From positions 1 to 64,000 of the forward strand of contig NZ_CP151979.1 in the NCBI RefSeq assembly GCF_038593265.1: DNA of 64,000 nucleotides, read 5' to 3'. Positions 139 through 44,462 of this stretch are shown in pieces. Origin of the DNA: Ureibacillus sp. FSL W7-1570 (GTDB lineage Bacteria > Bacillota > Bacilli > Bacillales_A > Planococcaceae). Under the pieces are notes generated by a model, which did not search any database, was not told the DNA's origin, and saw only the letters and a list, made by a program, of their open reading frames with translations. The translations under genes and the position numbers were made by a program. Position 1 is the first letter of the stretch. The number at the start of each line of letters is the position of its first letter.

Positions 139-159
139 GGTATCAAGGAGGGACCTATT

Positions 160-645: not shown

Positions 646-647
646 AA

Positions 648-714
648 GAGACCCTTTAAGGGTCAGCTGGAAAAGTAGTGCGGTTGGCGAACCATTCGAT
701 GCCCCTTTAGGGGT
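648..714 (+). terminator. Hairpins downstream of tnpA
   Basis: GACCCTTTAAGGGTC (648-662) is a compact perfect stem directly after the tnpA stop codon. A second stem, CCCCTTTAGGGG, lies at 702-713. Neither has a strong T-tract, so they may be element-end structures or weak terminators. Confidence 0.4.
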
Positions 715-746
715 TGGCCAGTAATAAAGGCTTCTAGCCGCAGAAC

Positions 747-772
747 AAACCACCCGTTCACACGGGTGGTTT
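747..772. terminator. IS right-end hairpin, probably doubling as the def terminator
   Basis: The stem AAACCACCCGT/ACGGGTGGTTT with loop TCAC ends three bases from the stop codon of def, which reads leftwards into it. On the minus strand the stem is followed by TTTGTTCT, a weak T-tract. It is both the most likely IS right-end structure and the only terminator-like element after def. Confidence 0.55.
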
Positions 773-775
773 TGA

Positions 776-1342: not shown

Positions 1343-2827
<1,485 letters not shown>

Positions 2828-2830
2828 CCT

Positions 2831-3808: not shown

Positions 3809-3828
3809 TGGGAGAAAGGGTGAATGGT

Positions 3829-5127: not shown

Positions 5128-5130
5128 CAG

Positions 5131-6543: not shown

Positions 6544-6554
6544 TGTGTAATGAA

Positions 6555-6585
6555 AGAGGGCGTCTTTTTAGGCGCCCTTTTTTGT
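6555..6585 (+). terminator. Terminator of the pdhABCD operon
   Basis: AGGGCG...CGCCCT forms a GC-rich stem followed directly by TTTTTT, starting 12 bases after the pdhD stop codon. It is a standard rho-independent terminator. Confidence 0.88.
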
Positions 6586-6651
6586 TATGACGGAATGGTG
6601 ATATCGGGAAAGGATAGAGGGGATAAATTTTATTGCCATAGTGGCAAAATT

Positions 6652-6688
6652 AAAAAGGGGGAAATGAATGGCTTCATTTCCCCCTTTT
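6652..6688. terminator. Long hairpin, terminator of the pucR-type regulator gene (bidirectional)
   Basis: AAAAGGGGGAAATGA and TCATTTCCCCCTTTT form a 15-bp perfect stem with a 6-base loop. Its A-tract and T-tract let it end transcription on either strand; it lies 12 bases beyond the leftward regulator gene. A smaller perfect repeat, TTGCCA-TAG-TGGCAA, lies at 6633-6647. Confidence 0.85.
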
Positions 6689-6699
6689 CGTACAGGCGG

Positions 6700-8322
6700 T
6701 TATTCGGCAACAGCATATGAGTCGTTATTTTCGAAACGAACAGACCACAATTTTAAACAAAGTTGGAGTAAGAAGATATCATCAGGATCGTTTAAAGACC
6801 GATTCGTCAAGGCTTCTATTTTTCTTAAACGGTATAATAAAGATTGACGGTGGAGAGATAGCGCCCTGGCGGTTTGACTGACATTGCCCTGATGGTAAAT
6901 ATAGGTCGAAAGGGTATTGATCAAATCCAATCCGTTATTTTTATCGTAAGCGGCAATTGCACCTATCGTTGAGTGCATCAATTCGGTGGACATGGAATTA
7001 TTGGATAAGGAAATCAATAGGTGGTAAATGCCTGTACTTGCAAAAGTGTTCCTAGTTCCGGGCCCTTTATGATTTCTTCCGATCTCCAGGGCAGTGCGGG
7101 CATTTTTATAACCTAAATGAAACATTAAGTTTCCGGTATGGTTTTCCCCAATTCCCCATGAAATGGTTGGCAGTTGATTTTTTTTCACATAACTGTCAAT
7201 CATATCTAAAAAGTGGTTCACTTCCCGGTCTGCCTCTGAAGATTTGCATTCCAGGAAAATGATGGTCAAGTCCCTTTTGAATGTGTAAATGAGATGCTTA
7301 TTTAATTTTTTGCTGACATTCTCTAAAATTTCTGAGAAGGTTCTTTTAAAATCTTTCTCCATTTCATGTATGTGCTCTTTTTTATGGACAATATAAAATT
7401 CCTTCAATTTTTCCGGAGAACCGACAATACAAATGTAAGGAAGATCCACTTCGAATCCGAATTTTTTCCCTTGGTTAATGAAATCTTCTTTTTTTGTCCA
7501 GCTTCCGTTTAAAAGGGTTTTAATATATTCTTTTTTTTCTTTATTTTTGGAAATCATTGACGCCATTTCTTTTTGAATCCATAACGTCAAAATGGTTACG
7601 ATATTATTTAAAATTAAAGCGGAAATGGGTTTCGCATTTAATTTTCTTGATTTAAAAATAAGAAAGCTTGAAGATTGATCCAATAAAGGGCTGATAGGGA
7701 CGATTTGCAAAAACTTTCCGTTATCGTACCGGATGATGGCGGGTTGATCGGTGTACGATGTCTCGGAGATTTGTTGTATTGTGTCATTTTCTATTTGTTC
7801 CTTGTATTTCAATTCCACTTCCATCTGAAATTCTTTCGATAAAAATGTTAAAACTTCTTCGAGAGGATAGTTATCCAAATAAAGTTTTAAAAGCTCTCTT
7901 TGGAGAGTATCCGCTTTATCAATGGATTGTTGTTCCCAACTGTTCAACTGTTCTAAAATGACTTTGAGAATATCCGAAAAGCGCATTTCCCACGGTAGTT
8001 CAATAAGAGGGAAATTTACGGATTTGCAGTATTCAATCACTTCTTCCGGGATATATTGGACATGCCCCCCGACTGCTATCGCCATTCCGGCAGCATTCGA
8101 GGAGTGAACATCTTTGACATATGTAAGAAATAAGTCGGGATTGTTCCCGCATCCAATGGCGGTTGTTAAAACGAGTTCGTTCTTTTTGATGAAGTCTTCA
8201 ACGGGAATTTCCATAACGGTAACAGATTCGATTACTTGTGAAGAAATGATATTGTTAGCAGATAATAGTTTTGCGGTTGAAAAAAGTGGAATGGACAACA
8301 AATCTCTGATTGTAAATTGCAT
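6700..8322 (-). CDS. PucR-family transcriptional regulator of the ectoine-type cluster
   Basis: This 540-residue protein has the PucR layout. The N-terminal sensor domain spans about residues 1-125 (FTIRDLLSIPLFSTAKLLS..., ELVLTTAIG). A long middle region follows. The C-terminal PucR-type helix-turn-helix lies at about 478-525 (GNVSQTARALSLHRQSLLYRLRKIEALT). Members usually activate nitrogen or purine/amine catabolism genes in response to a small ligand. It lies 31 bases downstream of the eutB-like gene on the same strand and is inferred to control the cluster at 8.3-20 kb. Described ectoine clusters usually carry a MocR-type regulator (EnuR), so this is a different solution. AAGGGGGAA precedes the ATG. 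Confidence 0.85.
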   Translation of the reverse strand: MQFTIRDLLSIPLFSTAKLLSANNIISSQVIESVTVMEIPVEDFIKKNELVLTTAIGCGNNPDLFLTYVKDVHSSNAAGMAIAVGGHVQYIPEEVIEYCKSVNFPLIELPWEMRFSDILKVILEQLNSWEQQSIDKADTLQRELLKLYLDNYPLEEVLTFLSKEFQMEVELKYKEQIENDTIQQISETSYTDQPAIIRYDNGKFLQIVPISPLLDQSSSFLIFKSRKLNAKPISALILNNIVTILTLWIQKEMASMISKNKEKKEYIKTLLNGSWTKKEDFINQGKKFGFEVDLPYICIVGSPEKLKEFYIVHKKEHIHEMEKDFKRTFSEILENVSKKLNKHLIYTFKRDLTIIFLECKSSEADREVNHFLDMIDSYVKKNQLPTISWGIGENHTGNLMFHLGYKNARTALEIGRNHKGPGTRNTFASTGIYHLLISLSNNSMSTELMHSTIGAIAAYDKNNGLDLINTLSTYIYHQGNVSQTARALSLHRQSLLYRLRKIEALTNRSLNDPDDIFLLQLCLKLWSVRFENNDSYAVAE

Positions 8323-8353
8323 AAGATTCCCCCTTGATGTTTCGAATAGAAAG

Positions 8354-9361
8354 TTATAAATATGCTTCTATGGCATTTGCGTGTGCATCCAAATCAACGT
8401 TGCATCCTGAAATGATAATGACGTTTTTTGTGTTTTCTTCAAGTGAAATCGCATTGTTTAATATGGCCCCGATACCGATGGCTGCCGCTCCTTCTACGAC
8501 AATGTTATGTTCCTTGTATAAATAAGCCATGCCTTTTTTGATCGCTTCTTCCTCCACTAAGATGGATTGGTCGACAAATTGTTGAACCATTTTAAATGTA
8601 TATTGATTCTTTTCCCCAATGCCGCCCAACAGGCTGTCTGCCAGGGTCGGTTCCTCGCGAACGGTCACCGGTTTTCCTCTTTTTAAACTTTCAAACATTG
8701 CCGCTCCTTTTTCCATGGATAAACCTATCACTTTTATGTCCGGATTCGTGGTTTTCATCACCAAACCAATACCGGAAAGCAGCCCTCCCCCGGATAAACC
8801 TCCAATGACACAATTGACATCCGGCAATTCTTCAAGGATTTCAAGAGCGATGGTTCCTTGGCCTGCAATTACTTCCGGATGATCAAAGGGCGGGATAACC
8901 GTCAACCCTTTTTCTTTAACGAGTTCATAACAGCGTTGCTCTGCATCATCCTGTCCATCTCCGTAAATTTCCAACTCTGCGCCCAAACTCTTGATTTTTT
9001 CAATTTTCGCCCTTGGAACATGTTTGGATACACAAATCACTGCGCGTATTCCTAATTTTTTGGCTGCCAGTGCTACAGCGAATCCGTGGTTTCCTGTGGA
9101 AAATGTCGTCACGCCCCGGGATTTCTGAGCGGGGGACAAGTTGGAAATGGCATTAAAAGCACCGCGCATTTTAAATGAGCGACTTTCATGCAAATGCTCA
9201 TATTTTAAATAGACTTCAGAGTTCGTTAAATTTGAAAGTTTGGGTGAAAAGATTAAAGGTGTTTTGTTAATATGGGAAGCTAAATTTTTTTTAGCCTGCC
9301 AAACATTTTGCAATGTAATTTCCTTACTTTCATTGATTCGTACATTTAATAATTTTGCCAT
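8354..9361 (-). CDS. eutB: Threonine dehydratase-like PLP enzyme, EutB type (hydroxyectoine utilization)
   Basis: This is a fold-type II PLP enzyme of 335 residues with no C-terminal ACT domain. The Schiff-base lysine is K64 (SFKMRGA), the asparagine loop is STGNHGFAVA near 103-112, and the phosphate loop is GGLSGGGLL near 184-192. The family covers threonine/serine dehydratases. In described ectoine clusters EutB is grouped with EutC in removing the extra hydroxyl of hydroxyectoine-derived compounds. That assignment rests on the neighbours, because sequence alone would also fit a catabolic threonine dehydratase. It is divergent from doeA and co-directional with the regulator gene. Confidence 0.78.
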   Translation of the reverse strand: MAKLLNVRINESKEITLQNVWQAKKNLASHINKTPLIFSPKLSNLTNSEVYLKYEHLHESRSFKMRGAFNAISNLSPAQKSRGVTTFSTGNHGFAVALAAKKLGIRAVICVSKHVPRAKIEKIKSLGAELEIYGDGQDDAEQRCYELVKEKGLTVIPPFDHPEVIAGQGTIALEILEELPDVNCVIGGLSGGGLLSGIGLVMKTTNPDIKVIGLSMEKGAAMFESLKRGKPVTVREEPTLADSLLGGIGEKNQYTFKMVQQFVDQSILVEEEAIKKGMAYLYKEHNIVVEGAAAIGIGAILNNAISLEENTKNVIIISGCNVDLDAHANAIEAYL

Positions 9362-9595
9362 AAATTCGACTGCCCCTTCCCCTATGTTAAGTATTCTAAC
9401 ATATTGTGTAATGGAATCTTACGTATTTCTATTCGGTTTTGAAAAAAATGTATAAAAAAATATCAAAAATCTCAATAGTATAAATTGTCTAAAAATTTCA
9501 TACAAGTTGACGCATTGTTCTGAAATGTCAGATAACTTACCATTCAATTAACAAATCATTCATCGCAATGAGGATATGGAAGGGAGTTTTGTAGA
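9362..9595. promoter_or_regulatory. Divergent eutB / doeA promoter region
   Basis: This AT-rich stretch separates the two divergent transcripts. A plausible rightward promoter is TTGACG (9507-9512), a 17-base spacer, then AGATAA (9530-9535), 60 bases before doeA. Leftwards, TAGAAT (complement of 9393-9398) is a candidate -10 box for eutB with no clear -35. This is where the PucR-type regulator would be expected to bind, but I could not define an operator. Confidence 0.4.
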
Positions 9596-10783
9596 ATGGC
9601 GATATTTGACATATCAGAGTATCAAACGCGGTTAAGAAAAACAAAAGAAAGGATGCAGGAAAAAGGGATAGAAGTGCTGGTGGTGACCGATCCGGCCAAT
9701 ATGAATTATTTAACCGGTTATGACGGATGGTCGTTTTATGTGCATCAATGTTTAATTGTACTTCTGGATGATGAAGAGCCATTCTGGATTGGAAGAGGCC
9801 AAGATGCAAATGGTGCCAAAGTTACGACCTGGTTGAATGAAAACCACATCATTCCTTACCGGGACCATTATGTTCAATCCACTGAAAGGCATCCAATGGA
9901 TTTCGTTTGCAACATATTAAAAGAAATTGGAAAGTCGAATGCAACGATTGGTATTGAAATGGATACTTACTATTTTACAGCAAAGTGTTATACGCAATTA
10001 AAACTTGGACTCCCACTGGCCACTTTTGTGGATGCGACTTCATTAGTGAATTATGTGCGCATTATCAAATCGGATAAAGAAATTGAATATATGAGGAAGG
10101 CCGCAAAGATTGTGGAAAAGGCGATGCAAACCGGCATTGATGCGATTGAAGAAGGCGTTCGCGAATGTGATGTAGTGGCGCAAATCATGCATGCCCAAAT
10201 CAGCGGAACGGAAGAGTTTGGCGGGGATTACCCGGCGATTATGCCATTACTTCCATCCGGCAAAAAGACATCAACTCCCCATTTGACTTGGACAGATGAA
10301 AAATACAAATCCGGAATACCGGTCATTTTGGAATTGGCAGGTTGTTATAATCGATACCATTCTCCATTATCACGGACCGTATTTATCGGAGAACCCGATC
10401 CAAAGGTCAAATATTTGGCGGACGTTGTGATCGAAGGATTGAATGCGACACTGGATTTCATTAAACCGGGTGTCACTTGTGAAGAAGTCGAGGAAGTCTG
10501 GAGAAAAACGATTGCAAAAAGCGGATTTGAAAAAGAATCCCGTATCGGTTACTCAATGGGATTAAATTATCCTCCTGATTGGGGTGAACACACTGCAAGC
10601 TTGCGGCCGGGAGATAAAACCGTACTCGAGCCGAATATGACTTTCCATTGCATTCCGGGAATATGGCTGGATGATTATGGGGTTGAACTGAGTGAATCGT
10701 TCAGAGTGACGGAGAATGGAATCGAAGTATTTGCAAACTTCCCAAGAAAATTATTTGTAAAGAATGCTACAAATGTTTATTAA
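9596..10783 (+). CDS. doeA: Ectoine hydrolase (M24 creatinase-like fold)
   Basis: DoeA/EutD opens the ectoine ring to N-acetyl-diaminobutyrate, the first step of ectoine catabolism. The 395-residue protein has the creatinase N-domain (1-155) and the pita-bread domain (160-395). The positions that hold metal-binding aspartates in aminopeptidase P relatives are changed: ELAG (246-249) and HSPLSRT (255-261). This points to a creatinase-like rather than a metal-dependent peptidase, which fits DoeA. Identification also rests on the adjacent doeB, eutC and ehu genes. A GGAAGGGAG site precedes the ATG. It is first in a ten-gene operon. Confidence 0.85.
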   Translation: MAIFDISEYQTRLRKTKERMQEKGIEVLVVTDPANMNYLTGYDGWSFYVHQCLIVLLDDEEPFWIGRGQDANGAKVTTWLNENHIIPYRDHYVQSTERHPMDFVCNILKEIGKSNATIGIEMDTYYFTAKCYTQLKLGLPLATFVDATSLVNYVRIIKSDKEIEYMRKAAKIVEKAMQTGIDAIEEGVRECDVVAQIMHAQISGTEEFGGDYPAIMPLLPSGKKTSTPHLTWTDEKYKSGIPVILELAGCYNRYHSPLSRTVFIGEPDPKVKYLADVVIEGLNATLDFIKPGVTCEEVEEVWRKTIAKSGFEKESRIGYSMGLNYPPDWGEHTASLRPGDKTVLEPNMTFHCIPGIWLDDYGVELSESFRVTENGIEVFANFPRKLFVKNATNVY

Positions 10784-34786: not shown

Positions 34787-34972
34787 GTTGCACATGTGTC
34801 CATGGTTTCATATTTTTGATCGGCCAGCTTACCCTCCTTTTGGAAGGCGGATAAGACACATTGGTATCGTTATCCGGGAGCCGGACCAAATTCATGGGCA
34901 TTCACACATTATTTTCCCTTCGCATAACCTACTCTTGATAATGGATGCTGACGAAACAAGGAGGTAAGAGGG

Positions 34973-35510
34973 ATGAAATGGTGGAAGATTAGTCTTTCCG
35001 TCATGCTGGCAGGGATGATGGTTTTTCTTGCCGCGTGCGGAGACAAAGAGATGACAAAAGTGAAAGTAGGGGAAGTAACACGTTCCATCTTTTATGCACC
35101 ACAATACGTGGCGATTTCCAAAGGATATTTTGAAGAAGAAGGGCTGGAAATTGAACTTTCCACAATTCCCGGCGGGGATAAAACAATGACTGCCCTCCTT
35201 TCAGGTGGAATCGATATTGCCCTTGTTGGAGCGGAAACTTCCATTTATGTGACAGCACAAGGCGCCAATGATCCGATCAAAAACTTTGCCCAATTAACCC
35301 AAACGGATGGAACGTTCTTAGTGTCCCGGGAAAAAATTGACGAATTTTCATGGGATCTGCTGAAAGGTTCCACATTCCTTGGCCAGCGCAAAGGCGGCAT
35401 GCCGCAAATGGTTGGGGAATTTGTATTGAAAAAACATGGCATCGACCCTCACAAGGATCTAAACTTGATCCAAAACATAGAATTTGCCAATATTGCAACA
35501 GCCTTTGCAT
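34973..35510 (+). pseudogene. NitT/TauT-type ABC substrate-binding protein, N-terminal half (split by an integrated element)
   Basis: This is the first 179 codons of a lipoprotein substrate-binding protein. The signal peptide has lipobox LAAC (C22), followed by KVKVGEVTRSIFYAPQYVAISKGYFEEEGLEIELSTIPGGDKTMTALLSGGIDIALVG, typical of the SsuA/TauA/ThiY fold. The gene is interrupted at TTTGCAT by a 6.95-kb element; the frame runs on for about 70 unrelated codons to 35722. The rest of the gene is at 42461-42912 and joins exactly in frame. A strong AAGGAGG site precedes the ATG. Without excision, the product would be a truncated, probably non-functional lipoprotein. Confidence 0.9.
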
Positions 35511-35531
35511 GCGGGTACATAAGACACTACT
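35504..35531. other. attL of the integrated element
   Basis: The core TTTGCAT (35504-35510) is followed after GC by the element arm GGGTACATAAGACACTACT (35513-35531). This arm is the inverted partner of 42428-42446 at the other end. Host sequence lies to the left of the core, in frame with the binding-protein gene. Confidence 0.85.
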
Positions 35532-35595
35532 TACAACCGGGATGGATTCATGGAAGTTGCAATGAAAAGATTTTAAACCATATGGTGAATGACAA

Positions 35596-35643
35596 AATGA
35601 AGCTGCTTATCCCTTTTCCTTCAAAGGGGCAAGCAGCTTCATT
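35596..35643. terminator. Terminator of the element's MFS gene
   Basis: AATGAAGCTGCTT and AAGCAGCTTCATT form a 13-bp perfect stem, with a CCCTTT/AAAGGG inner stem. It lies 25 bases beyond the leftward MFS gene. Confidence 0.75.
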
Positions 35644-35668
35644 GTTTAATGGATTTGATTCAACCCGT

Positions 35669-37156
35669 TTATTTATTTTCAATATTTTCCGCGATGACTT
35701 TGCTTACATCAACCCGTTTTAAGAATAATGTCAAGATTAAAGCCACAATCGTCACGATTGTTGCAACCAAGAATGACACTTGAATACCTTCAAGCAATGC
35801 CTGTTGCTGGATCCCTGCGATAAACGTCGGATTTTGCAATTCTGCCGGATTTGCGGCTTTTACCGCTTCCACCAATTCTTCCCCTTTATTGGTAGCGACA
35901 GAATTCATCAACGTCACGAACAACGCCGTTCCGATTGAACCAATCACTTGTTGAACCGTGTTGTTGACCGCTGTACCATGTGGATTCAAGCGGTTCGGCA
36001 ATTGGTTCAAACCGTTTGTCATAATAGGCATCATGACCATTGACATACCAAACATCCGCAATGTGTACATTAAAACAATGGTCGTTTTTGTTGTTTCCAA
36101 ATCCATCGTGGATAACAAATAAGTTCCGTAAGCAGTAACGGATAACCCGACAAATGCCAAAATACGCGGACCGAATTTGTCGAACAATCTTCCTGTGATT
36201 GGTGACATGATTCCCATTGCGAGGGCACCCGGCAACATCATTAAACCTGAATCAAGCGGTGAAATACCGCGGACGTTCTGAACGTAAGCCGGTGTTAAAA
36301 TCATCCCTGAAAACATGGCGGCTGTGACAACCATCGAAATGATGTTACCAACGGCAAACATTGGGTATTTGTAAACGCGCAAATCCAATAAAGGTTGTTC
36401 CAAGCGGAATTGGCGGATGATGAACCAAATGATGCCGATTGCTCCTATAATCAACGTCGAAAGAACTTTTGCATCCGACCATCCTTCAGTGCTGGCCGTT
36501 GAACAGCCGTATAGTACGCCACCGAAACCGATAATCGATAATAGAATGGAAAAGTAGTCAATGGAAACGTCGCGTGTTTCCAATATGTTTTCCAATTTCC
36601 AAATAGCTAAAATCAAGCTGATGACAGCAAAGGGCAGTATCATTTCGAATAATACCCGCCAGTCCCAATATTCCACAATATAACCGGACAATGTTGGCCC
36701 GATTGCCGGTGCGGTAATCATAACCAAACCGAAAATCCCCATTGCCGCGCCACGTTTTTCGCGGGGGAAGCTCACAAGCATGATGTTCATAAGCAACGGA
36801 CCCATTACGGAACCGCCAGCCGCTTGAATCATACGCCCGGCCAAAAGCACACCAAAGTGGGGAGCATATGCCGCCAATGCGGTACCAATAGTGAATAGCG
36901 AAATTGCTGTAATAAATAAATGACGGTTTTTAAACCGTGTAATTAAAAAGGCGGATACAGGAATCAGAACACCACTTACCAGCATGTAACCTGTAGCCAA
37001 CCACTGAACAGTTGAATAATCCACTTCAAAATCTTTCATGATTGTTGGTAGTGCAACATTCAACAAAGAGTTATTTAAGAATGAAACAAACGCGCCAAAG
37101 AAAAGTATTGCAATCACTAAATATGGCGGTTTTTTCCCTTGTTTATCTAATGTCAT
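35669..37156 (-). CDS. MFS multidrug exporter, DHA2 (EmrB/QacA, LmrB-like) family
   Basis: This 495-residue drug:proton antiporter has about 14 membrane segments. Family motifs are FLNNSLLNVALPTIMKDF (motif D1 region, about 25-42), WLATGYMLVSGVLIPVSAFL, the motif-A-like LFDKFGPR, and the motif-C-type APAIGPTLSGYIVEYWDWRVLF. DHA2 pumps export lipophilic drugs, dyes or bile-salt-like compounds; LmrB of B. subtilis is the nearest kind. An AAAGGGAT site precedes the ATG. It is divergent from a TetR-family gene that probably represses it, and both are cargo of the integrated element. Confidence 0.92.
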   Translation of the reverse strand: MTLDKQGKKPPYLVIAILFFGAFVSFLNNSLLNVALPTIMKDFEVDYSTVQWLATGYMLVSGVLIPVSAFLITRFKNRHLFITAISLFTIGTALAAYAPHFGVLLAGRMIQAAGGSVMGPLLMNIMLVSFPREKRGAAMGIFGLVMITAPAIGPTLSGYIVEYWDWRVLFEMILPFAVISLILAIWKLENILETRDVSIDYFSILLSIIGFGGVLYGCSTASTEGWSDAKVLSTLIIGAIGIIWFIIRQFRLEQPLLDLRVYKYPMFAVGNIISMVVTAAMFSGMILTPAYVQNVRGISPLDSGLMMLPGALAMGIMSPITGRLFDKFGPRILAFVGLSVTAYGTYLLSTMDLETTKTTIVLMYTLRMFGMSMVMMPIMTNGLNQLPNRLNPHGTAVNNTVQQVIGSIGTALFVTLMNSVATNKGEELVEAVKAANPAELQNPTFIAGIQQQALLEGIQVSFLVATIVTIVALILTLFLKRVDVSKVIAENIENK

Positions 37157-37302
37157 ATTATCCCTTTCCCCATTTCTTTCTTTTTATCGACTTAAACATT
37201 TTATACCCATAGTTCAATTTTATCAATAAAAAAATACATTCAGTCCAACATTGATTTTTTGTGTATAATAAATAGAGCATTATATAAATAGAGGAGTTCA
37301 AA
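37157..37302. promoter_or_regulatory. Divergent promoters of the MFS and tetR-type cargo genes
   Basis: On the minus strand TTGATA (complement of 37221-37226), a 17-base spacer and TAAAAT (complement of 37198-37203) form a good promoter for the MFS gene. On the plus strand a TATAAT box lies at about 37263-37268 before the regulator gene. No clean palindromic operator stood out. Confidence 0.5.
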
Positions 37303-38208
37303 ATGAATAAAAGAAAAAAAGCGGTCATTGATCATGCTTTGCGATTGTTTGTAGAACATGGAATTGCGAAAACATCAATCCAACAAATCATTGAAAGAGC
37401 AGGGATTTCAAAAGGAACTTTTTACAATTACTTCTCTTCCAAAACGGAATGTATTGAAGCGATATTGGAGCAGGCGAGATATGATGCCTCACTTTTACGG
37501 GCCGAACTCATGATAGGAAAAGACCCTACGGATATCAACGTATTCGCCAACCAGATTGCTGTATTATGGAAGATTAATCAGGAATCCGGATTGGATGTGC
37601 TATACGAAGAAATTTTGCATTCAGGGGAAGACGAATTAAAAGAACTGGTTTTGCGTCATCGGATATTGGAGTTTGAATGGTTCCGATTGCGTTTGATTGA
37701 AGTTTACGGAGATGAAATGCGCAATTACGGGTTTGAAGCGGCAATATTATTTTATGGAATGTTTCAATATTTAACCTTCACCTGCAAAATTTCCAATCAC
37801 CATTCCATTTCTTTGGAGGAAATCGCTTCAATATTGTTGAAATATTTGGAAAAAATTATTGATATGATGATAAATGAAAAAACGGCAGTATTAAATGCCG
37901 ATAAAATAAATACCATTTTATCCATTTCGAAAAAACAATATCGTTTGGATATTTCAGAAATAAAAAAGAAACTGGAAGATCTGATCAAGGAAAATTTATC
38001 AAGCAATCAGAAAGAAATTACAATGGCCATCATCGAGGAATTCCATCGCGAATCTCCCCGGACCATTATACTCAATGCTTTATTGAAAGTTTTTATTGAC
38101 GAATTTAAAGGCTCCGAATTGGAACAGACAGTGAAAGAAATCGCAAGCCTTATTTGGTATGATGTGCGTTCAAAACAGTTGCGTCAAAAAAAGGCGCAAA
38201 AAGTTTGA
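37303..38208 (+). CDS. TetR/AcrR-family regulator (element cargo)
   Basis: This 301-residue protein has the TetR helix-turn-helix at about 8-53 (HALRLFVEHGIAKTSIQQIIERAGISKGTFYNYFSSKTECIEAIL) and a long C-terminal effector domain. It is divergent from the MFS exporter and inferred to repress it. A GAGG ribosome binding site precedes the ATG. A strong terminator follows. It is a different protein from the TetR-type gene at 20182, with a longer C-terminal half. Confidence 0.9.
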   Translation: MNKRKKAVIDHALRLFVEHGIAKTSIQQIIERAGISKGTFYNYFSSKTECIEAILEQARYDASLLRAELMIGKDPTDINVFANQIAVLWKINQESGLDVLYEEILHSGEDELKELVLRHRILEFEWFRLRLIEVYGDEMRNYGFEAAILFYGMFQYLTFTCKISNHHSISLEEIASILLKYLEKIIDMMINEKTAVLNADKINTILSISKKQYRLDISEIKKKLEDLIKENLSSNQKEITMAIIEEFHRESPRTIILNALLKVFIDEFKGSELEQTVKEIASLIWYDVRSKQLRQKKAQKV

Positions 38209-38245
38209 TCCCATTGACGAAGGAAGCGGGACACCTTCTAAAAAA

Positions 38246-38290
38246 ATGAGCTATTTTAGTAGACGCCAGCCACTAAAATAGCTCATTTTT
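38246..38290. terminator. Terminator between tetR-type gene and recombinase gene
   Basis: ATGAGCTATTTTAGT and ACTAAAATAGCTCAT form a perfect 15-bp stem followed by TTTTT. It lies between convergent genes and can act in both directions. Confidence 0.88.
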
Positions 38291-38327
38291 ATATGCCGTA
38301 CAAGAAGAGCCGTTCCGATGAAAAAGT

Positions 38328-39908
38328 TTAATTGATGTTCCCTTCAAAATAATCCGACAACCCGATATTCAATTCAATTTCAATTTCGTTTTTGCCTAAA
38401 TACACTTTATTGATTAATTTCGAGAGCAATGCTTTTTTATGATCCCCATCCGCTACTTCGAACTTTTGCGCCCAATGTTTCAATTCATTCGCCAAGAAAT
38501 TGACATCTGAACAGGTTTCCCGTTCTTTTTGCAATTCTTCCGTCAAAGAATGGATTAGCGCCGACTTTTCCTCCATTTGTTTTTCAATTGTTTCCAAGGC
38601 AAGAGAAAGCTGTTCCGGTGTAAATGCGCTCTCGCCGATCAAAGCCTTCCCGATTTCTAAATTCAGTTTTTCCTGCTGTTTCTTTAAATCAACGTACTCT
38701 TTTTTTAAATGTTTGATATTTTGTTCTTTCAGTTTTACTCTTTCAGCTTTCAAATGTTTGCCTGCTTCCAGGTATGGTTGAAGTTCGAATTGGGATAGGA
38801 TGGATTTGAGTTTATTGATAATGAGCGTGTCGTATTTTTTTCCACCCCATATGTTTTGACGGTGACGGCAATAAGTTTTGCCTTTGTTTAAAGGGCATCG
38901 GTATCGGTAAATGGCGGTTTTATGCCTTTTATCTTTTGAAGATTTGTAAAGGTAATTGGAAGTCAGCTTTGAACCGCAATATTTGCAATAGGCAAGGCCT
39001 GACAGCAGCAATTTTCCTGATCTCGGGATATCCGATTTGTCCTGTTCTTTCATGTTGCCGCGTCTAATTTTTCGGATTCGCTCAGCCTGATAAAACAATT
39101 CCTCAGGAAGGATTTGCAGTTTTTCGTTAAATGGCTGCGTTCCTCCTGCAGCCGTTTTATATCTTTTAAATCCGATATAAATGGGGTTGGACAGTATTCT
39201 TTGGATGGTGCTCACAGCAAAGATTTTGCCATCACGGTTACGATAGCCCTGTTCATTTAAATGATCGGCGATTTTTCGATAGCCCATATGTTTGTTTACA
39301 TATAAGTGGTAAATCAGCTTAATGATTTCCGATTCCATTTCGTCCGGCACCAATTCTTTTACACGGCGGTCTTTGTTTTTCCAATGCCGCTCTTCTGTTT
39401 CGACAATTTTATAGCCCAATGGTGCTGTTCCGCCTTGAAAATAGCCTTGTTCACTCAGTTGTTTTTTGGCTTCTTTCACCCGGATGGATGTTTTTTGGCT
39501 TTCCCCATCGGATTGCCAAAAACTGATATAATTCAGCAGTTTGTCGACATGGGATTCGATTTTCCGTTGCCCTTCTTTTACGGACCAGACTTCGATGCCA
39601 TGTTGAATCAGAAAATTGACCATGACCGGTGTTTCATCTTCCCGGCGTCCTAAACGGTCGAACATGAAAACCAGCAACACATCGAATTTTTTCTTTAAAG
39701 CTCCTTCTTTTAGTGCCGCCATTTCATCCCGCTCATTGACGGATTTTTTCCAGCCGGATACGCCCTTTTCGTACAACTCATTTGTGATGGTCCAATCGGG
39801 TTTGCCGTTGACGAATTCATGGCAGGCGTTTTTTTGCATAGGAATGTCTTCATCTGCGCTGACTTGTTGTTTTTTCGACACCCGGTAAAGGCACCAAACC
39901 CGTTTCAT
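38328..39908 (-). CDS. Large serine recombinase (integrase) of the element
   Basis: This 526-residue recombinase has the three parts of the large serine integrase class. The catalytic domain has nucleophile S11 in YRVSKKQQ and RLGRR at 85-89. A 'recombinase' domain (about 160-260: GGTAPLGYKIVE, GYRKIADHLNEQGYRNRDGK, RILSNPIYIGFKRY) follows. A zinc-ribbon has C308, C311, C338 and C347, and a long coiled coil runs at about 385-470. Such enzymes catalyse directional attP x attB insertion and, with a directionality factor, excision. It is inferred to act on the att sites at 35504 and 42454. The ATG at 39908 is favoured over a TTG six codons upstream. Confidence 0.93.
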   Translation of the reverse strand: MKRVWCLYRVSKKQQVSADEDIPMQKNACHEFVNGKPDWTITNELYEKGVSGWKKSVNERDEMAALKEGALKKKFDVLLVFMFDRLGRREDETPVMVNFLIQHGIEVWSVKEGQRKIESHVDKLLNYISFWQSDGESQKTSIRVKEAKKQLSEQGYFQGGTAPLGYKIVETEERHWKNKDRRVKELVPDEMESEIIKLIYHLYVNKHMGYRKIADHLNEQGYRNRDGKIFAVSTIQRILSNPIYIGFKRYKTAAGGTQPFNEKLQILPEELFYQAERIRKIRRGNMKEQDKSDIPRSGKLLLSGLAYCKYCGSKLTSNYLYKSSKDKRHKTAIYRYRCPLNKGKTYCRHRQNIWGGKKYDTLIINKLKSILSQFELQPYLEAGKHLKAERVKLKEQNIKHLKKEYVDLKKQQEKLNLEIGKALIGESAFTPEQLSLALETIEKQMEEKSALIHSLTEELQKERETCSDVNFLANELKHWAQKFEVADGDHKKALLSKLINKVYLGKNEIEIELNIGLSDYFEGNIN

Positions 39909-39929
39909 TACCACACACCCGTCCAAAAG

Positions 39930-40133
39930 TTATAATAGCTCCAGGAAAAAGGTTTTTAATGCATTGCGGGCTTCCTTTCTTTTCTCCTCATCTTTCGTGA
40001 ATTTCAGGTGTATTTTCACTTCGTTGTCTGATAAATCCGTTAAATAATCAAACCCATCATCGGATTTGTGCAAATATTTCACTCCGCCAATGACCATTTC
40101 ACCCGATTGCTTTGAAGGATTAACATCATTCAA
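39930..40133 (-). CDS. Small protein upstream of the serine recombinase (candidate directionality factor)
   Basis: This 67-residue acidic/basic protein of unknown family opens NDVNPSKQSGEMVIGGVKYLHKSDDG and ends in a charged helix (KFTKDEEKRKEARNALKTFFLELL). The TTG start at 40133 follows a GGGGGG site by about 6 bases. Its stop lies 21 bases before the recombinase ATG, so the two genes are probably co-transcribed. Small genes next to serine integrases sometimes encode excision factors; I suggest this only from position. Confidence 0.6.
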   Translation of the reverse strand: MNDVNPSKQSGEMVIGGVKYLHKSDDGFDYLTDLSDNEVKIHLKFTKDEEKRKEARNALKTFFLELL

Positions 40134-40246
40134 TCAAATCCCCCCGTTTTTTTAAGGTGTTAAATTGTATTCGTGCTGAATTGATAATATTAGTCATTTT
40201 CCGAAACGGAAATGTCGAAACGCCAAGTCGGAATCAACTTTTTTAC

Positions 40247-40302
40247 AAAAAAAGACCCCATAAAAGACCTGCACATGTGTGTACAGCTTCATGGGGCCAA
40301 TT
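40247..40302 (-). terminator. Terminator of the Old Yellow Enzyme gene
   Basis: On the minus strand CCCCAT and ATGGGG enclose a long loop with further pairing, followed by TTTTTTT. It lies 31 bases beyond the stop codon. The rest of 40134-40333 holds only promoter-like AT-rich DNA for the small gene. Confidence 0.65.
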
Positions 40303-40333
40303 TTTCCGTTTACTTATAATGAATCAGGAATCT

Positions 40334-41464
40334 TTAGCGTTCTTTCACCGGGAACCAGCCTGGTCTGGAAATGATTTGTTCCCATAATCCATCCGGAATG
40401 ATCAGTTCTTCCTGTTGGTCAGTGAAAATGACAATGGAGATTTCATCTTCCCTTCCTTCCTGGATTTTTTGCACCCAATCCGGATCCACAATCATTTCTC
40501 TGCCTATGGCAATGAGGTCAACCCCTGTTTCCAGCGCTTCTTTCGCATCGTCGGCAGTTATAATGGAACCGACGCCGATGAGTGGTACACGGCCGTTGAT
40601 GGTTTCAAGTAAATATTCAATCCGCGTTTTAGTGAAATCCTCGACGCCGACTCTTGGAGTGGAGCGGAAATCATTTAATGAAACATGCAGATAATCAAGT
40701 CCTTGATTTGCAAGTACATCAACAAAGACAAGAGTATCCGCCATTGTAATGCCAGGTGTTTCCGGTTCTTCCGGAGAGAAACGGTAACCGACGATGAAAG
40801 GGGATTTTGCATGTTGGTCGACAACGCTTTTTACTTTCTTGATGATTTCAAGCGGGAACGACATTCGTTTTTCAAGGGTGCCGCCATATTGGTCTTCCCG
40901 GCGGTTGGAATGTGGCGAGAAAAATTGATGAATCAGATAGCCGTTCGCCCCATGAATCTCAACGCCATCAAAACCGGCTTCAATCGCGCGGCGGGTCGCT
41001 TCACCAAATGCATCAATGATTTCTTCAATTTCTTGAATCGTCAAAGATCGGGGTGTTTCCGCCCCGGGTCTTTCAGCCGGAACCGCACTCGCGCTAACAA
41101 TATCTCCGTCCGGTACAAGTTCAGGCGGGCATAATCTTCCGCCGTGATGGATTTGAAGTATGGCTTTGGCTCCTTGTTGTTGAATCGCGGTTGCCACTTT
41201 TCTTAACCCCGGAATCATTTCATCACGATCTGCGGCAAATTGGCCGTGGAATGCTTTCCCATTTGGGGTTACATAAGCGCAAGCCGTGATGACTGCACTC
41301 ACGCCCGCAGATCTCCGGGCATAGTATTTTAATTCAATTTCTGAAACGGAGCCGTCCGGATTGGATGACCAGTGTGTCATTGGAGCAATGACGATGCGGT
41401 TTTTCAATGTCACACCATTCGGGAAGGTAAAAGGTGAAAATAAACTTTTAAATTTGTCCTTCAT
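40334..41464 (-). CDS. NADH:flavin oxidoreductase, Old Yellow Enzyme family
   Basis: This 376-residue FMN TIM-barrel enzyme matches the OYE family: LFSPFTFPNGVTLKNRIVIAPMTHWSSNPDG at the start, ILQIHHGGR (about 101-109), the active-site pair in VEIHGANGYLIHQFFSPHSNRREDQYGGTLEKR, and VGSIITADDAKEALETGVDLIAIGRE for phosphate binding. Members reduce activated C=C bonds, nitroesters or quinones. As cargo of the element it may detoxify electrophiles, alongside the exporter. A GGGGGAAAA site precedes the ATG. It is transcribed in the same direction as the recombinase. Confidence 0.92.
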   Translation of the reverse strand: MKDKFKSLFSPFTFPNGVTLKNRIVIAPMTHWSSNPDGSVSEIELKYYARRSAGVSAVITACAYVTPNGKAFHGQFAADRDEMIPGLRKVATAIQQQGAKAILQIHHGGRLCPPELVPDGDIVSASAVPAERPGAETPRSLTIQEIEEIIDAFGEATRRAIEAGFDGVEIHGANGYLIHQFFSPHSNRREDQYGGTLEKRMSFPLEIIKKVKSVVDQHAKSPFIVGYRFSPEEPETPGITMADTLVFVDVLANQGLDYLHVSLNDFRSTPRVGVEDFTKTRIEYLLETINGRVPLIGVGSIITADDAKEALETGVDLIAIGREMIVDPDWVQKIQEGREDEISIVIFTDQQEELIIPDGLWEQIISRPGWFPVKER

Positions 41465-41734
41465 AACTTTTCCCCCAATCAGTTATTTCACTCACTTTAA
41501 CGATACGCCTTTATTGGATAATTTTTCAAATATAACGCATAAAAAAAATGGAGAGTCCCCTGTTGGGCAGAGGTGAGGAACGGCTTCTTTAGGGCGTTAT
41601 TTCTTTACAAATATGATTTCTCCTTTAAGATATTCTGTAGTGAAAATACATATATTCGAACTGATGGCTTAATCCATTAAACCATCTTTTGTTAAAAAGA
41701 ATTTTTTTGATTGCATGTTGCAGAGGTGAGTCCG

Positions 41735-41947
41735 CTGATTCATTTTTTTGAAACGGTACAAGGAATAGCAACGTTCTTCTTATTATTTTGCGGGTATATC
41801 TATTACAGGCAATTAAAGAGAAAGAGGTTGGAGAAAAAGGTTTCGGCGTTTGAGAATGTAATGTATCTATTGACGGGCTTATCCGTATTCCTTTTTGCCG
41901 CCAGTTTTTTGCTTCTTTTTTTAGATGCCCTTTTTGAAGGCGAATGA
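41735..41947 (+). CDS. Small two-helix membrane protein in the element
   Basis: About 70 residues with two membrane segments (VQGIATFFLLFCGYIYY and VMYLLTGLSVFLFAASFLLLFLDALF) joined by a basic loop (RQLKRKRLEKK). Family not recognised. The start is uncertain: AGAGGTGAG at 41722-41730 is a good ribosome binding site, but the codons at a proper distance are CTG (41735) or ATT (41738). GTG 41726 overlaps the site and TTG 41711 has no site. A hairpin with a T-tract follows at about 41988-42018. Confidence 0.5.
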   Translation: MIHFFETVQGIATFFLLFCGYIYYRQLKRKRLEKKVSAFENVMYLLTGLSVFLFAASFLLLFLDALFEGE

Positions 41948-42132
41948 TTGAATGCCCGTTTGGAAGCTTCAGTCAGATCCGGCAATCAGGAGACTCCTTG
42001 AAAAAGGGGCTTTTTTTGTTTTTGGGCGGATTGGAATGTTTATTTTTGAAAATATGGCCAAGCAAAAATCAGGGAACTTTTTTTCCATTGATTCGTAGAA
42101 ATCACCAACCGTATTTTTAAGGGGGAATATTT

Positions 42133-42288
42133 ATGAAGCCAATCAATTTTAAGAATCCACATGTAGCAAGCTATCTTTTAATCGGGGTTGTATTTTTTAT
42201 GATCGGTTTTACAAAAGGGATCCTTTTCTTTCTCTTGGGGGCGATTTTTATTTTGTTAGGGATTCGGCAAAACGCCCGTTTATCTTAA
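42133..42288 (+). CDS. Very small membrane protein in the element
   Basis: A 51-residue reading frame from an ATG with AAGGGGGAA 6-7 bases upstream. It has two closely packed membrane segments (SYLLIGVVFFMIGF and GILFFLLGAIFILLGI) and a basic end (RQNARLS). The family was not recognised. The well-placed ribosome binding site and membrane pattern support it as a real gene. It lies about 140 bases inside the right end of the element. Confidence 0.6.
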   Translation: MKPINFKNPHVASYLLIGVVFFMIGFTKGILFFLLGAIFILLGIRQNARLS

Positions 42289-42427
42289 TCATCAATTGCT
42301 GCAAACATCGATTAGGGCCTTATTCCTGCCGTCAATGATCCCGAATCTTCCATCCTAACTGCCGGCCATCCCGGAATCAAAAGCCTATGTTGCCATCTGT
42401 ATTTAGGATGACCTTTCCTGGCATGAC

Positions 42428-42460
42428 AGTAGTGTCTTTTGTACCCTCGCGCTTTTGCAT
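42428..42460. other. attR of the integrated element
   Basis: The element arm AGTAGTGTCTTTTGTACCC (42428-42446) is followed by TCGCGCT and the core TTTGCAT (42454-42460). Host coding sequence of the split binding-protein gene begins immediately after the core. The arm is the reverse complement of 35513-35531 with one mismatch. Confidence 0.85.
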
Positions 42461-42912
42461 CCGGAACGGGGGAATTCGTACAACTATTTGAACCGACCGC
42501 AAGCGTTTTTGAAAAAGAAGGAATCGGCTATGTGGTGGCATCATTCGGTACGGAATCCGGGCATGTTCCATATACGGTGTTTATGGCGAAAGAAAGTTAC
42601 TTGAAGAAAAATCCGGAAGTGGCGGAGAAATTTACGAGAGCCATCAAAAAAGCGCAAGACTTTGTGTATGATGCTCCGGCGGAAGAAGTGGCAAAAGCCA
42701 TTCAGCCATTCTTTGAAGATACGGACGTTGAATTGATTGCACAAGTGGTGGAACGCTACCGCCAGCAGGAATCCTTTGCGAAGGATCCGATTTTGGATGA
42801 GGAAGAGTGGAACAACTTGCAGGATATCATGGAAGAAGTGGGGGAGCTTCCGATGCGCATGGATTACTCAAAACTGGTGGATACAACATTCGCCGAGAAG
42901 GTAACGAAGTGA
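42461..42912 (+). pseudogene. NitT/TauT-type ABC substrate-binding protein, C-terminal half
   Basis: This is the C-terminal 150 codons of the binding protein begun at 34973: SGTGEFVQLFEPTASVFEKEGIGYVVASFGTESGHVPYTVFMAKESYLKKNPEVAEKFTRAI and onward. Joining 34973-35510 to 42461-42912 gives one frame of 329 codons (TTT GCA T + CC GGA), so only the integrated element separates the halves. The frame opens leftwards into the element from 42439, but no proper start exists there. Two bases separate its stop from the ATPase gene. Confidence 0.9.
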
Positions 42913-42913
42913 T

Positions 42914-43678
42914 ATGAGTTTCTTGCTTGTTGATCACGTCAGCCATGCGTATTTTTCAAAGGATGCGGCAACGGAAGCGTTACAGGACATCCATTTGACC
43001 ATTGATGAAGGGGAATTCGTTTCCTTTATCGGGCCGAGCGGGTGCGGTAAAACAACCCTTCTCTCCATCATCGCCGGATTATTTCAGCCGACTTCAGGAA
43101 ATGTCTACATTGAAAATCAAAAGGTGTACGGAAATAAAGAGCTCTCCATCGGGTATATGTTGCAGCAGGATTATTTATTCCCGTGGAAAACCATCGAGGA
43201 AAATATCACCCTTGGATTAAAACTGGCGAATCAAGAGTATGATCGGCATATTGCGTCAAAGCTGCTGGAAGATGTGGGATTGCCATCCATCGAGAAAAAA
43301 TATCCCCGGGAATTATCGGGGGGGATGAGGCAAAGGGTGGCGCTCGCCAGAACCCTTGCGGTGGATCCGAAAGTGCTATTGCTGGATGAACCGTTTTCCG
43401 CCCTGGACTATCAATCCAAATTGAAGCTGGAAGATTTGGTATCCAACATGTTAAAAGCGTACAATAAAACGGCCATTCTTGTGACCCATGACATCGGGGA
43501 AGCCATTGCGATGAGCGACCGCATTTTCTTATTTTCCAGAAGACCCGGACGAATCCATCAAACCTTTGAAGTGCCGGAAGAAATCAGAAACTTGACTCCT
43601 TTTGAAGCAAGAAGCCATTCAAGCTATTCACCATTATTTCAACAAATTTGGAAGGAGCTTGAAAGCCTTGAACATTAA
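42914..43678 (+). CDS. NitT/TauT-type ABC transporter ATP-binding protein
   Basis: This 254-residue ATPase belongs to the SsuB/TauB/ThiZ type. Walker A is GPSGCGKTT (about 39-47), the Q-loop is [16 protein letters not shown], the signature is [15 protein letters not shown], Walker B is [12 protein letters not shown] and the switch is VTHDIGEA. The substrate is unknown; the class imports sulfonates, nitrate, or thiamine-related pyrimidines. It starts 2 bases after the split binding-protein gene and overlaps the permease gene by 11 bases. With the binding protein broken, its transcription may depend on promoters inside the element. Confidence 0.92.
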
Positions 43679-44462
43679 AGAACTCCATCTGGCATATAAG
43701 AAAAGATTGGCGAAGGAAAAACGATGGATTCGATTTTACCAGTTGTTCATCCTGATCGGCTTTTTTGCCATATGGGAAGCCGCCTCTTCCAACCGCTGGA
43801 TTGATCCGCTCATATTCAGCGCGCCTTCGAGGATTTTCCGGTTACTGATGAACATGATTTCGGATGGCACGATTTTTATCCACATGAACTATACATTGTT
43901 TGAAACGGTTCTCGGGTTTATTTTGGGGACGCTCGTAGGCACGGTTTTGGCGGCCATTCTTTGGTGGTTCCCGACTTTTTCCAAAATTTTGGACCCGTAT
44001 TTGGTTGTGTTGAATTCCATGCCGAAAGTCGCACTTGGACCGATTTTGATTGTTGCTCTCGGTCCAGGGATGACATCCATCATCACAATGGGGGCCATCA
44101 TCTCCGTCATCATTTCCACCATCGTCATTTACACATCTTTCCGCAACGTGGATGCCAACTATCTGAAAGTGTTGCAAACCTTCAATGCGACGAAATGGCA
44201 AATGTTCAAAGAAGCGATTTTGCCCGCCTCTTTTCCGACAATCATCTCCACATTAAAAGTGAATGTGGGATTGTCTTGGGTAGGGGTCATTGTCGGCGAA
44301 TTCCTCGTTTCTTCCCAGGGGCTCGGCTATTTGATCATTTATGGATTCCAAGTGTTCAACTTCAATCTCGTATTAATGTCGCTCCTCATCATTGCCATCT
44401 TCGCAACACTCATGTACCAGCTGGTGGAAATGCTGGAGAGACGATTGATCAAAAATGAGTAA
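43668..44462 (+). CDS. NitT/TauT-type ABC transporter permease
   Basis: This 264-residue membrane component has about six membrane segments and the coupling motif [55 protein letters not shown], typical of SsuC/TauC permeases. The TTG at 43668 is selected because GGAAGGAG lies 10 bases upstream. A TTG at 43659 is too close, and longer frames run back into the ATPase gene. A clear terminator follows. Confidence 0.9.

What the first reader, a model, noticed from the sequence alone, without database searches (positions are those of the whole stretch)
34973..42912. Precisely excisable 6.95-kb serine-integrase element splits an ABC binding-protein gene
The sequence shows TTTGCAT at both junctions. 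Inverted 19-nt arms GGGTACATAAGACACTACT (35513-35531) and AGTAGTGTCTTTTGTACCC (42428-42446) differ at one base. The two gene halves fuse in frame (TTT GCA T + CC GGA) to a 329-codon binding protein. The arms are 16 bases apart in the rebuilt attP and its centre falls on the TT of the core. The element encodes a large serine recombinase. By known logic of such integrases, excision would restore a functional transporter, so the insertion could act as a genetic switch that trades an importer for an exporter plus an oxidoreductase.
Basis: partly seen in the sequence, partly recalled or inferred. Interest (0 to 1): 0.88.

Follow-up and report, generated by a model that had tools for sequence, protein, structure and literature searches.

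The report
Island splitting a spore-stage transporter gene
A movable DNA island sits inside a transporter gene of a spore-forming bacterium, and its DNA-cutting enzyme carries the kind of on-switch used in the doomed mother cell, so the cell probably cuts the island out and repairs the gene only while making a spore.

Summary
A 6,950-bp island splits a 329-aa ABC binding-protein gene at codons 179/180. Among 261 genomes of the family, 83 carry the gene: 74 uninterrupted, 9 split at the same codon. Those 9 are the genomes with a close relative of this integrase; a tenth has a 55% relative elsewhere. The nine islands share the integrase and a 67-aa protein directly upstream, while cargo differs (efflux/oxidoreductase here, defence-like genes elsewhere).

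The regulation changes the interpretation. The integrase operon has a sigma-E-type promoter motif in 9 of 9 islands. The split gene has a sigma-K-type motif in 8 of 8 split genes whose start is available, 38 of 47 uninterrupted family genes and 18 of 26 genes of other families. All 83 genomes with the gene have the sporulation gene spoIVA. Both halves remain under strong purifying selection.

The best reading is a sporulation gene-intervening element like skin (sigK) or gin (gerE): excised in the mother cell, inherited intact through the spore. A vegetative importer/exporter switch is less likely. No paper found names this target. Excision itself was not observed, and promoters are motif matches only.

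The parts
34902..34931 (+). sigma-K-type promoter motif of the split gene: TCACA, 15-bp gap, GCATAACCTA
   Evidence: coordinates; pattern met in 8/8 split, 38/47 uninterrupted same-family and 18/26 other-family genes; spacing and the C at position 4 of the -35 element match PMC517825
34973..35510 (+). 5' part of the ABC substrate-binding protein gene (codons 1-179 and the first base of codon 180)
   Evidence: uninterrupted in 74 of 83 family genomes that carry the gene
35480..35531 (.). attL: host half, TTTGCAT core (35504-35510) and element arm GGGTACATAAGACACTACT (35513-35531)
35504..42453 (.). the 6,950-bp island
35669..37156 (-). cargo: DHA2-family MFS efflux permease, 495 aa
   Evidence: PF07690, TIGR00711; among the islands compared shared only with G253 and G252
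37303..38208 (+). cargo: TetR-type regulator, 301 aa
   Evidence: PF00440; among the islands compared shared only with G253 and G252
38328..39926 (-). large serine recombinase (integrase), listed as 532 aa
   Evidence: PF00239, PF07508, PF13408; 77-79% identical full-length relatives in 7 further genomes and a partial copy in G248
39930..40133 (-). 67-aa protein directly upstream of the integrase, candidate recombination directionality factor
   Evidence: present in all 9 islands; 28 invariant columns in 8 sequences; no Pfam, NCBIfam or PHROGs family at E 0.001
40164..40192 (-). sigma-E-type promoter motif of the 67-aa/integrase operon: TAATATT, 14 bp, AATACAAT
   Evidence: 9 of 9 islands, once per element, 28-31 nt before the 67-aa start; 0 in 200 rounds of dinucleotide shuffles; near-invariant block in the alignment of 8 upstream regions
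40334..41464 (-). cargo: old-yellow-enzyme/NADH:flavin oxidoreductase, 376 aa
   Evidence: PF00724; among the islands compared shared only with G253
41711..41947 (+). small ORF, 78 aa, weak DUF6338 match below cut-off, no match among the other islands
42133..42288 (+). small ORF, 51 aa, no Pfam match
42428..42490 (.). attR: element arm AGTAGTGTCTTTTGTACCC (42428-42446), TTTGCAT core (42454-42460) and host half
42461..42912 (+). 3' part of the substrate-binding protein gene
   Evidence: purifying selection kept
42914..43678 (+). ABC transporter ATPase of the same operon
   Evidence: PF00005; conserved next to the split gene
43602..44462 (+). ABC transporter permease of the same operon (listed from a TTG; true start probably further in)
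   Evidence: SaoP/SsuC-type permease models, below their cut-offs

Best explanation
This is a sporulation gene-intervening element. A non-phage genomic island integrated by its own large serine recombinase into a fixed site (centre TT) in a conserved stretch of a binding-protein gene. That gene is the first of an ABC importer operon used late in the mother cell (sigma-K-type promoter). When the cell sporulates, sigma-E in the mother cell switches on the operon of the 67-aa protein and the integrase. The 67-aa protein probably acts as the directionality factor, so the integrase excises the island precisely, and the repaired gene is then transcribed by sigma-K. The forespore chromosome keeps the island, so it is inherited while the gene still works once per sporulation. 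Shown by sequence: exact sites, in-frame repair, empty sites in relatives, repeated use of the same site, the conserved module, both promoter motifs, purifying selection on both halves. Inferred: actual excision, its restriction to the mother cell, the activity of both promoters, the role of the 67-aa protein, and identity with the YtlA-YtlC-YtlD transporter of Bacillus subtilis.
For: Of 261 family genomes, 9 have an integrase 77% or more identical to this one (one is the window itself; G248 has a partial copy) and all 9 have the gene split at codon 179/180; the other 74 carriers of the gene are uninterrupted. Integrase plus 67-aa ORF is the only module found in all 9 islands in the ORF comparisons made. 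Sigma-E-type motif upstream of that module in 9/9, once per element, none in shuffles. Sigma-K-type motif upstream of the gene in 8/8 split, 38/47 uninterrupted family and 18/26 other-family copies, against shuffle means of 0.11, 0.67 and 0.29, and 0 of 32 other window genes. Gap lengths and the published C-versus-T difference at position 4 of the -35 element fit both assignments (PMC517825 passages and section 14). All 83 genomes with the gene have a spoIVA match, against 197 of 261 overall. dN/dS of both halves in comparisons that include a split gene is 0.00-0.13 with no stop codon in the compared codons, and split copies are not faster in 10 of 12 relative-rate comparisons. ytlA, ytlC, ytlD are listed as sigma-K-regulon ABC transporter genes (PMC3416734 passages). 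gin in gerE has the same logic, shown experimentally (PMC5595907 abstract and sections).
Against: No excised circle or repaired gene was seen; only assemblies were available. Promoters are motif matches, and the exact patterns were written after looking at these upstream sequences; the islands are also related to each other, so 9 of 9 is not nine independent events. The 67-aa protein has no recognised family and its model is poor (pLDDT 65.9). Orthology with YtlA was not tested because that sequence could not be fetched by name. Nine of 47 family genes and 8 of 26 other-family genes lack the strict sigma-K motif (eight of the nine have GGCAC...GAATAAGTTA at the same place). G235's split copy has more unique changes than its uninterrupted partners (20 against 8, 18 against 12). 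G248, with the gene split, shows an integrase frame with a stop near residue 214 at a contig end. Recent insertion could also explain preserved halves.
Confidence: 0.78

Rival explanations
1. An ordinary integrative island (SCC-like) that uses a conserved gene as a docking site. The gene is simply lost in carriers; insertions are recent and turn over quickly.
For: Cargo is swapped freely and includes defence-like genes. The integrase moves between genera: identities of 84-92% among G018, G067, G158, G159 and G235, while the binding protein is 65-82% identical. Two split genomes have very close uninterrupted relatives.
Against: It does not predict a conserved sigma-E-type motif on the integrase operon, nor that the target carries a sigma-K-type motif. 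The integrase relative in G165, in another gene and a phage-like context (read by eye), lacks the motif. W and G253 have sister integrases (98/97 support); dS between them is 1.74, 1.29, 1.34 and 0.93 for permease, regulator, integrase and oxidoreductase and 0.54 for the 67-aa gene, within the range of 20 host genes (0.23-1.76), so the islands are not a recent exchange between the two, yet both halves of the gene stay at dN/dS 0.04-0.05.
Confidence: 0.17
2. A vegetative phase switch as first proposed: cells alternate between importer-on (island out) and exporter-plus-oxidoreductase-on (island in).
For: Precise attL/attR, in-frame repair, complete integrase frame.
Against: The exporter and oxidoreductase are not conserved among islands. 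Promoter motifs point to mother-cell timing. An excised island without a replicon would be lost from a growing lineage (general knowledge).
Confidence: 0.04
3. The two halves are now separate working genes or two harmless remnants, and the element is immobile.
For: Both halves are open frames.
Against: Past the shared arm the 5' half runs into a different sequence in most islands, so it has no common new end, and neither half decays. Whether the 3' half has a start or promoter of its own was not examined systematically.
Confidence: 0.01

Closest known systems
gin element in gerE of Bacillus cereus ATCC10987 (GirC/GirX; PMC5595907, abstract and three sections seen)
   Same: Non-phage island in a mother-cell gene; serine recombinase with a small directionality protein; imperfect inverted repeats around a short core; variable cargo; a further recombinase pair beside the active one (here in 4 of 9 islands, as girAB)
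   Different: Other target gene (ABC importer, not gerE); the window island has a single recombinase; small protein 67 aa rather than 42 aa; direct sequence comparison with GirC and GirX not made
skin element in sigK (SpoIVCA) of Bacillus subtilis (passages of PMC6957869)
   Same: Serine recombinase, sigma-E-controlled excision, gene repaired in the mother cell, element kept in the spore
   Different: Skin is a defective prophage and splits a sigma factor gene; here no phage genes were found in the window island and the target is a transporter
SP-beta in spsM, vfbin in spoVFB, prophages in kamA, yin in yabG (passages of PMC6957869 and PMC10747680; start of abstract of PMC4191935)
   Same: Mobile element inside a sporulation gene, site-specific recombination
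   Different: Prophages or prophage-like; other genes
Staphylococcal cassette chromosome (Ccr recombinases; description partly recalled, partly from PMC5595907)
   Same: Fixed site, inverted repeats, swapped cargo; CcrB is the best-scoring NCBIfam model for the integrase (113 bits)
   Different: Score far below the CcrB cut-off of 900; target is not rlmH; the site lies inside a coding gene that is broken

Membership tests
Sporulation gene-intervening elements (skin, vfbin, gin, SP-beta type) | Element splits a gene that precise site-specific excision would restore in frame | tested here: met
   In-frame 329-aa fusion and empty sites in relatives
Sporulation gene-intervening elements (skin, vfbin, gin, SP-beta type) | Target gene is expressed in the mother cell | tested here: inconclusive
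   Sigma-K-type motif widely conserved and gene found only in spoIVA-bearing genomes of the family; expression not measured
Sporulation gene-intervening elements (skin, vfbin, gin, SP-beta type) | Element encodes the site-specific recombinase | tested here: met
   Resolvase, Recombinase and zinc-ribbon domains; attP symmetry 22 of 30; activity not tested
Sporulation gene-intervening elements (skin, vfbin, gin, SP-beta type) | Element encodes a directionality factor | tested here: inconclusive
   67-aa protein conserved in 9 of 9 islands next to the integrase; function untested
Sporulation gene-intervening elements (skin, vfbin, gin, SP-beta type) | Recombinase or directionality factor under mother-cell sigma control | tested here: inconclusive
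   Sigma-E-type motif in 9 of 9, none in shuffles; expression not measured
Sporulation gene-intervening elements (skin, vfbin, gin, SP-beta type) | Excision observed during sporulation | not testable with these tools
   Only assemblies held
gin | Inserted in gerE | tested here: not met
   Inserted in an ABC binding-protein gene
gin | Three serine recombinase genes | tested here: not met
   One in the window island; a further adjacent pair in 4 of 9 related islands (G018, G158, G159, G235)
gin | GirX-type 42-aa directionality protein | not tested
   GirX sequence not fetched; the conserved small protein here is 67 aa
SCC (Ccr) cassettes | Recombinase reaches a Ccr family cut-off | tested here: not met
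   CcrB 113 bits against a cut-off of 900
SCC (Ccr) cassettes | Inserted at rlmH | tested here: not met
   Target identified as a binding-protein gene
Prophage | Phage structural or replication genes | tested here: not met
   None among the Pfam and NCBIfam matches of the window-island proteins scanned (seven, six); no IMG/VR relative of the integrase by the scan

The most novel reading that the evidence does not exclude
A mother-cell transporter gene serves spore-forming Bacilli as a general parking slot for accessory islands. Any cargo, including anti-phage-type systems, can sit there at little cost, because one shared unit (att sites, integrase, 67-aa protein, sigma-E promoter) repairs the gene in the disposable mother cell. 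Spore formers would thus have an SCC-like cassette slot that is licensed by development.
Probability: 0.6. Interest if true: 0.75.

Novelty: new member of a known kind. Interest (0 to 1): 0.64.

Why it matters
If true, it adds a new target gene, an ABC importer, to the short list of genes known to be cut out and repaired during sporulation (sigK, spoVFB, spoVR, spsM, gerE, kamA, yabG in the passages read). It shows the same excision unit carrying unrelated cargo in nine genomes of four genera. It gives a testable reason why mobile elements favour mother-cell genes: insertion costs little in the germ line if the repair is tied to sigma-E. It also points to a role for a conserved, uncharacterised late-sporulation transporter and offers an integrase/67-aa pair with a defined site for genome engineering in thermophilic Bacilli.

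Tried and rejected
Riboswitch or other Rfam RNA near the gene: none at gathering scores in 30-46 kb. A viral origin: no relative in IMG/VR by the pattern scan; every phage and plasmid match was below 60% identity, the best listed about 35%. More relatives at order level: the order held the same 261 genomes as the family. In 398 genomes of the class the integrase has relatives of 34-42% identity outside the family. Folding the 67-aa protein: mean pLDDT 65.9, so no fold search was made. Identifying the substrate: the matches are NMT1/SsuA-type, below cut-off for the named functions. Integrase relatives outside the nine: of 14 loci given to the script, 13 were evaluated before it stopped with an error at L011. 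Only G165 (L063) has a clear 67-aa homologue; a looser sigma-E-type pattern matched upstream in L084 and L088 but not in L063 or the other ten. In the first integrase tree one row (G465) had been read on the wrong strand and another (G360) was very distant; the tree was rebuilt without both. Recombinase pair against plasmids, to look for pMC319: hits of 22-29% identity among the 12 of 15 records listed. Two literature searches with many terms returned nothing.
Full report
What is there. The island lies between 35504 and 42453 and splits a gene for an ABC substrate-binding protein into 34973-35510 and 42461-42912. Joining the flanks gives a 329-aa protein without a stop. The halves match the two parts of the NMT1-type profiles, and an ATPase and a permease gene follow directly. 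The rebuilt attP has 22 of 30 symmetric positions centred on a TT; 3,000 random joins of window sequence reached at most 19. The core heptamer alone is not informative, since it occurs six times between 35 and 43 kb.

Relatives. The joined protein was searched in 261 genomes of the family: 83 have it at E 1e-40 or better, 74 uninterrupted and 9 split. The integrase was searched in the same 261: ten have a match at E 1e-60 or better. Nine of these ten are the nine split genomes; the tenth, G165, has a 55% relative in another place and an uninterrupted gene. In G248 only the 3' half and a partial integrase lie on a short contig, and in G235 the two halves lie on two contigs. Named records among the relatives are Ureibacillus thermosphaericus DSM 10633 and Lysinibacillus antri, so the window is probably from Ureibacillus (inference). 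All junctions read (8 left, 9 right) fall at the same codon, and all ends carry versions of the same arm, GTACAAAAAACACTACT, with 0-3 mismatches and no further copy inside the islands. In 30 uninterrupted genes examined, of the 74, the TT at the centre is invariant. G066 and G164 are close relatives of split G067 and G159 and have the empty site, 97% and 95% identical across the junction.

One unit, many cargoes. Seven islands read from end to end measure 6,950 to 23,103 bp; G235 has at least 27 kb in two pieces and G248 is incomplete. In the ORF comparisons all nine share only the integrase and a 67-aa protein encoded directly upstream of it, apart from ORFs that overlap these on the other strand. 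Cargo: efflux permease, TetR-type regulator and oxidoreductase in the window and in G253 (which adds a GtrA/GtrII glycosylation set); ABC exporter, MerR and GNAT genes in G254; a STAND NTPase with a marginal Mrr-like domain in G018; DndB-like, RelA/SpoT-like and AAA proteins in G159; ABC-3C-type, AAA and IS110 genes in G158; a SMODS nucleotidyltransferase, Mrr and NB-ARC proteins in G235; S-layer-domain protein and IS3 in G067. Proteins were scanned in part: ten window proteins, seven of them from the island, and 40 proteins of the related islands against Pfam, of 109 ORFs of 70 aa or more listed. Four islands have an extra pair of adjacent serine recombinases (families checked for the pairs of G018 and G159). 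The integrase is 84-92% identical among G018, G067, G158, G159 and G235, although the host binding protein is only 65-82% identical, so the unit moves between genera.

Regulation. Upstream of the 67-aa/integrase operon all nine islands carry TAATAT(T/A), about 14 bp and (A)ATACAnT, 28-31 nt before the start; it occurs once per island and not in 200 rounds of dinucleotide shuffles. In an alignment of eight of these upstream regions this block is nearly invariant while sequence further upstream is not. Upstream of the binding-protein gene there is TCACA-15 bp-GCATAACCTA (34902-34931). A strict pattern of this kind is met in 8 of 8 split genes with a readable start, 38 of 47 uninterrupted genes of the family and 18 of 26 genes of other families, with shuffle means of 0.11, 0.67 and 0.29. 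None of 32 other window genes has it, and none of the 32 has a near-equal sigma-E-type pattern (ATATT instead of TAATAT). Both patterns were written down after these upstream regions had been seen, so the counts measure conservation, not a blind prediction. Rows left out of that count: L081-L083 (second copies of loci already used) and L104, L108, L110 (same family, brought in by the class search). Eight of the nine family misses carry GGCAC and GAATAAGTTA at the same place. The published description of sigma-K and sigma-E promoters gives a 15-bp gap for a 5-nt and a 12-bp gap for an 8-nt -35 element, the same -10, and a C against a T at position 4 of the -35 element (PMC517825, passages and section 14). 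TCACA and TAATA fit that rule; the letter-by-letter consensus of these promoters is otherwise recalled, since the logos are figures. G165, whose integrase relative sits beside a different ABC gene in what looks by eye like a phage context, has the small protein (56% identical over 55 residues) but no such motif.

The target looks like a sporulation gene. All 83 genomes with the gene also have a spoIVA match, which 197 of 261 have (one of the 83, G245, only a weak one); the 64 genomes without spoIVA do not have the gene (Fisher p 4e-13, which ignores kinship). By genus the gene is in 7 of 19 and spoIVA in 13 of 19. The gene is found in 178 of 398 genomes drawn from the class. In B. subtilis ytlA, ytlC and ytlD, an ABC transporter of the same three parts, are listed in the sigma-K regulon (PMC3416734, passages) and the transporter's function is unknown (PMC11466899, passages). 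That our gene is the orthologue is likely but was not tested.

Selection. Between split genomes W (the window), G253 and G254, dN/dS is 0.03-0.04 for the first half and 0.02-0.05 for the second. Pairs of a split with an uninterrupted gene, or of two split genes, give 0.00-0.13 where dS could be computed; pairs of uninterrupted genes give 0.015-0.10. No stop codon lies in the compared codons (1-176 and 183-329) of any split gene; stops reported for some half matches lie past the junction, inside the island (read). Amino-acid changes unique to the split copy are not more numerous than in the uninterrupted partner in 10 of 12 comparisons; both exceptions are G235 (20 against 8 and 18 against 12). 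ATPase and permease are likewise conserved. W and G253 carry sister integrases (support 98/97) and share three cargo genes in the same order. dS between them is 0.93-1.74 for these and the integrase and 0.54 for the short 67-aa gene, against 0.23-1.76 for 20 host genes. This is compatible with the island having sat there since their common ancestor, which without repair would predict about 19-21 stop codons per gene at 0.45 changes per site. It does not exclude separate acquisition, because the island ends differ. G252 is instructive: it keeps a fragment of the 5' half, attL and part of a G253-like island without the integrase, and has a complete gene copy beside it.

Interpretation. The parts match the scheme shown for gin in gerE: GirC and a 42-aa GirX, expressed in sporulation, excise a non-phage island (PMC5595907, abstract and sections read). 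Elements in mother-cell genes persist because the spore genome keeps them (PMC6957869, passages). I therefore read the window island as a member of that kind with a new target. The steps of excision, its timing and the role of the 67-aa protein are inferred.

Novelty check. The ten literature searches listed no paper whose title or shown abstract describes an element in this gene; two of them returned nothing at all. Targets named in the passages read are sigK, spoVFB, spoVR, spsM, gerE, kamA and yabG. The library lacks most subscription journals, so an earlier report cannot be excluded. Gene names typA, ylaH, ftsW, pyc, ctaA and ctaD used are recalled from order and size.

Noticed in passing
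L063 (G165) 8189-10618: A 55% relative of the integrase with a 75-aa homologue of the 67-aa protein directly upstream, in what looks by eye like a phage context (dihydrofolate reductase-like and metallophosphoesterase-like ORFs), abutting the 3' part of an ABC exporter-like gene: a related unit apparently using another ABC gene as its site, without the sigma-E-type motif.
   Followed up: partly
L062 (G252) 1-7461: Unmatched stretch (by eye an IS remnant), fragment of the 5' half of the gene (codons 50-179), attL, part of a G253-like island without integrase, then a complete binding-protein gene: a locked, partly deleted island beside a restored gene.
   Followed up: partly
L053 9570-12442; L057 8273-11151; L055 11409-14286; L058 8167-11093: Adjacent pairs of further serine recombinases (458-467 and 498-508 aa in G018, G159 and G235; in G158 the first lies in two frames and the second is 387 aa) preceded by small ORFs, in four of nine islands; the G018 pair has weak matches to CcrA, CcrB and XisF. 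Role unknown, like girAB of gin.
   Followed up: partly
L061 (G248) 4981-5659: Integrase frame with a stop near residue 214 close to the contig end, in a genome with the gene split; real decay or assembly error.
   Followed up: no
L058 3510-5394; L057 12683-16678; L055/L056: Related islands carry defence-like genes (SMODS nucleotidyltransferase, DndB-like with RelA/SpoT and AAA proteins, ABC-3C component), unlike the window island. They were not scanned against PADLOC.
   Followed up: partly
G067 against G066 (L054, L065): The two halves of the gene differ in divergence from the closest uninterrupted relative: dS 0.25 in the first half and 0.02 in the second, which suggests recombination near the site.
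   Followed up: no
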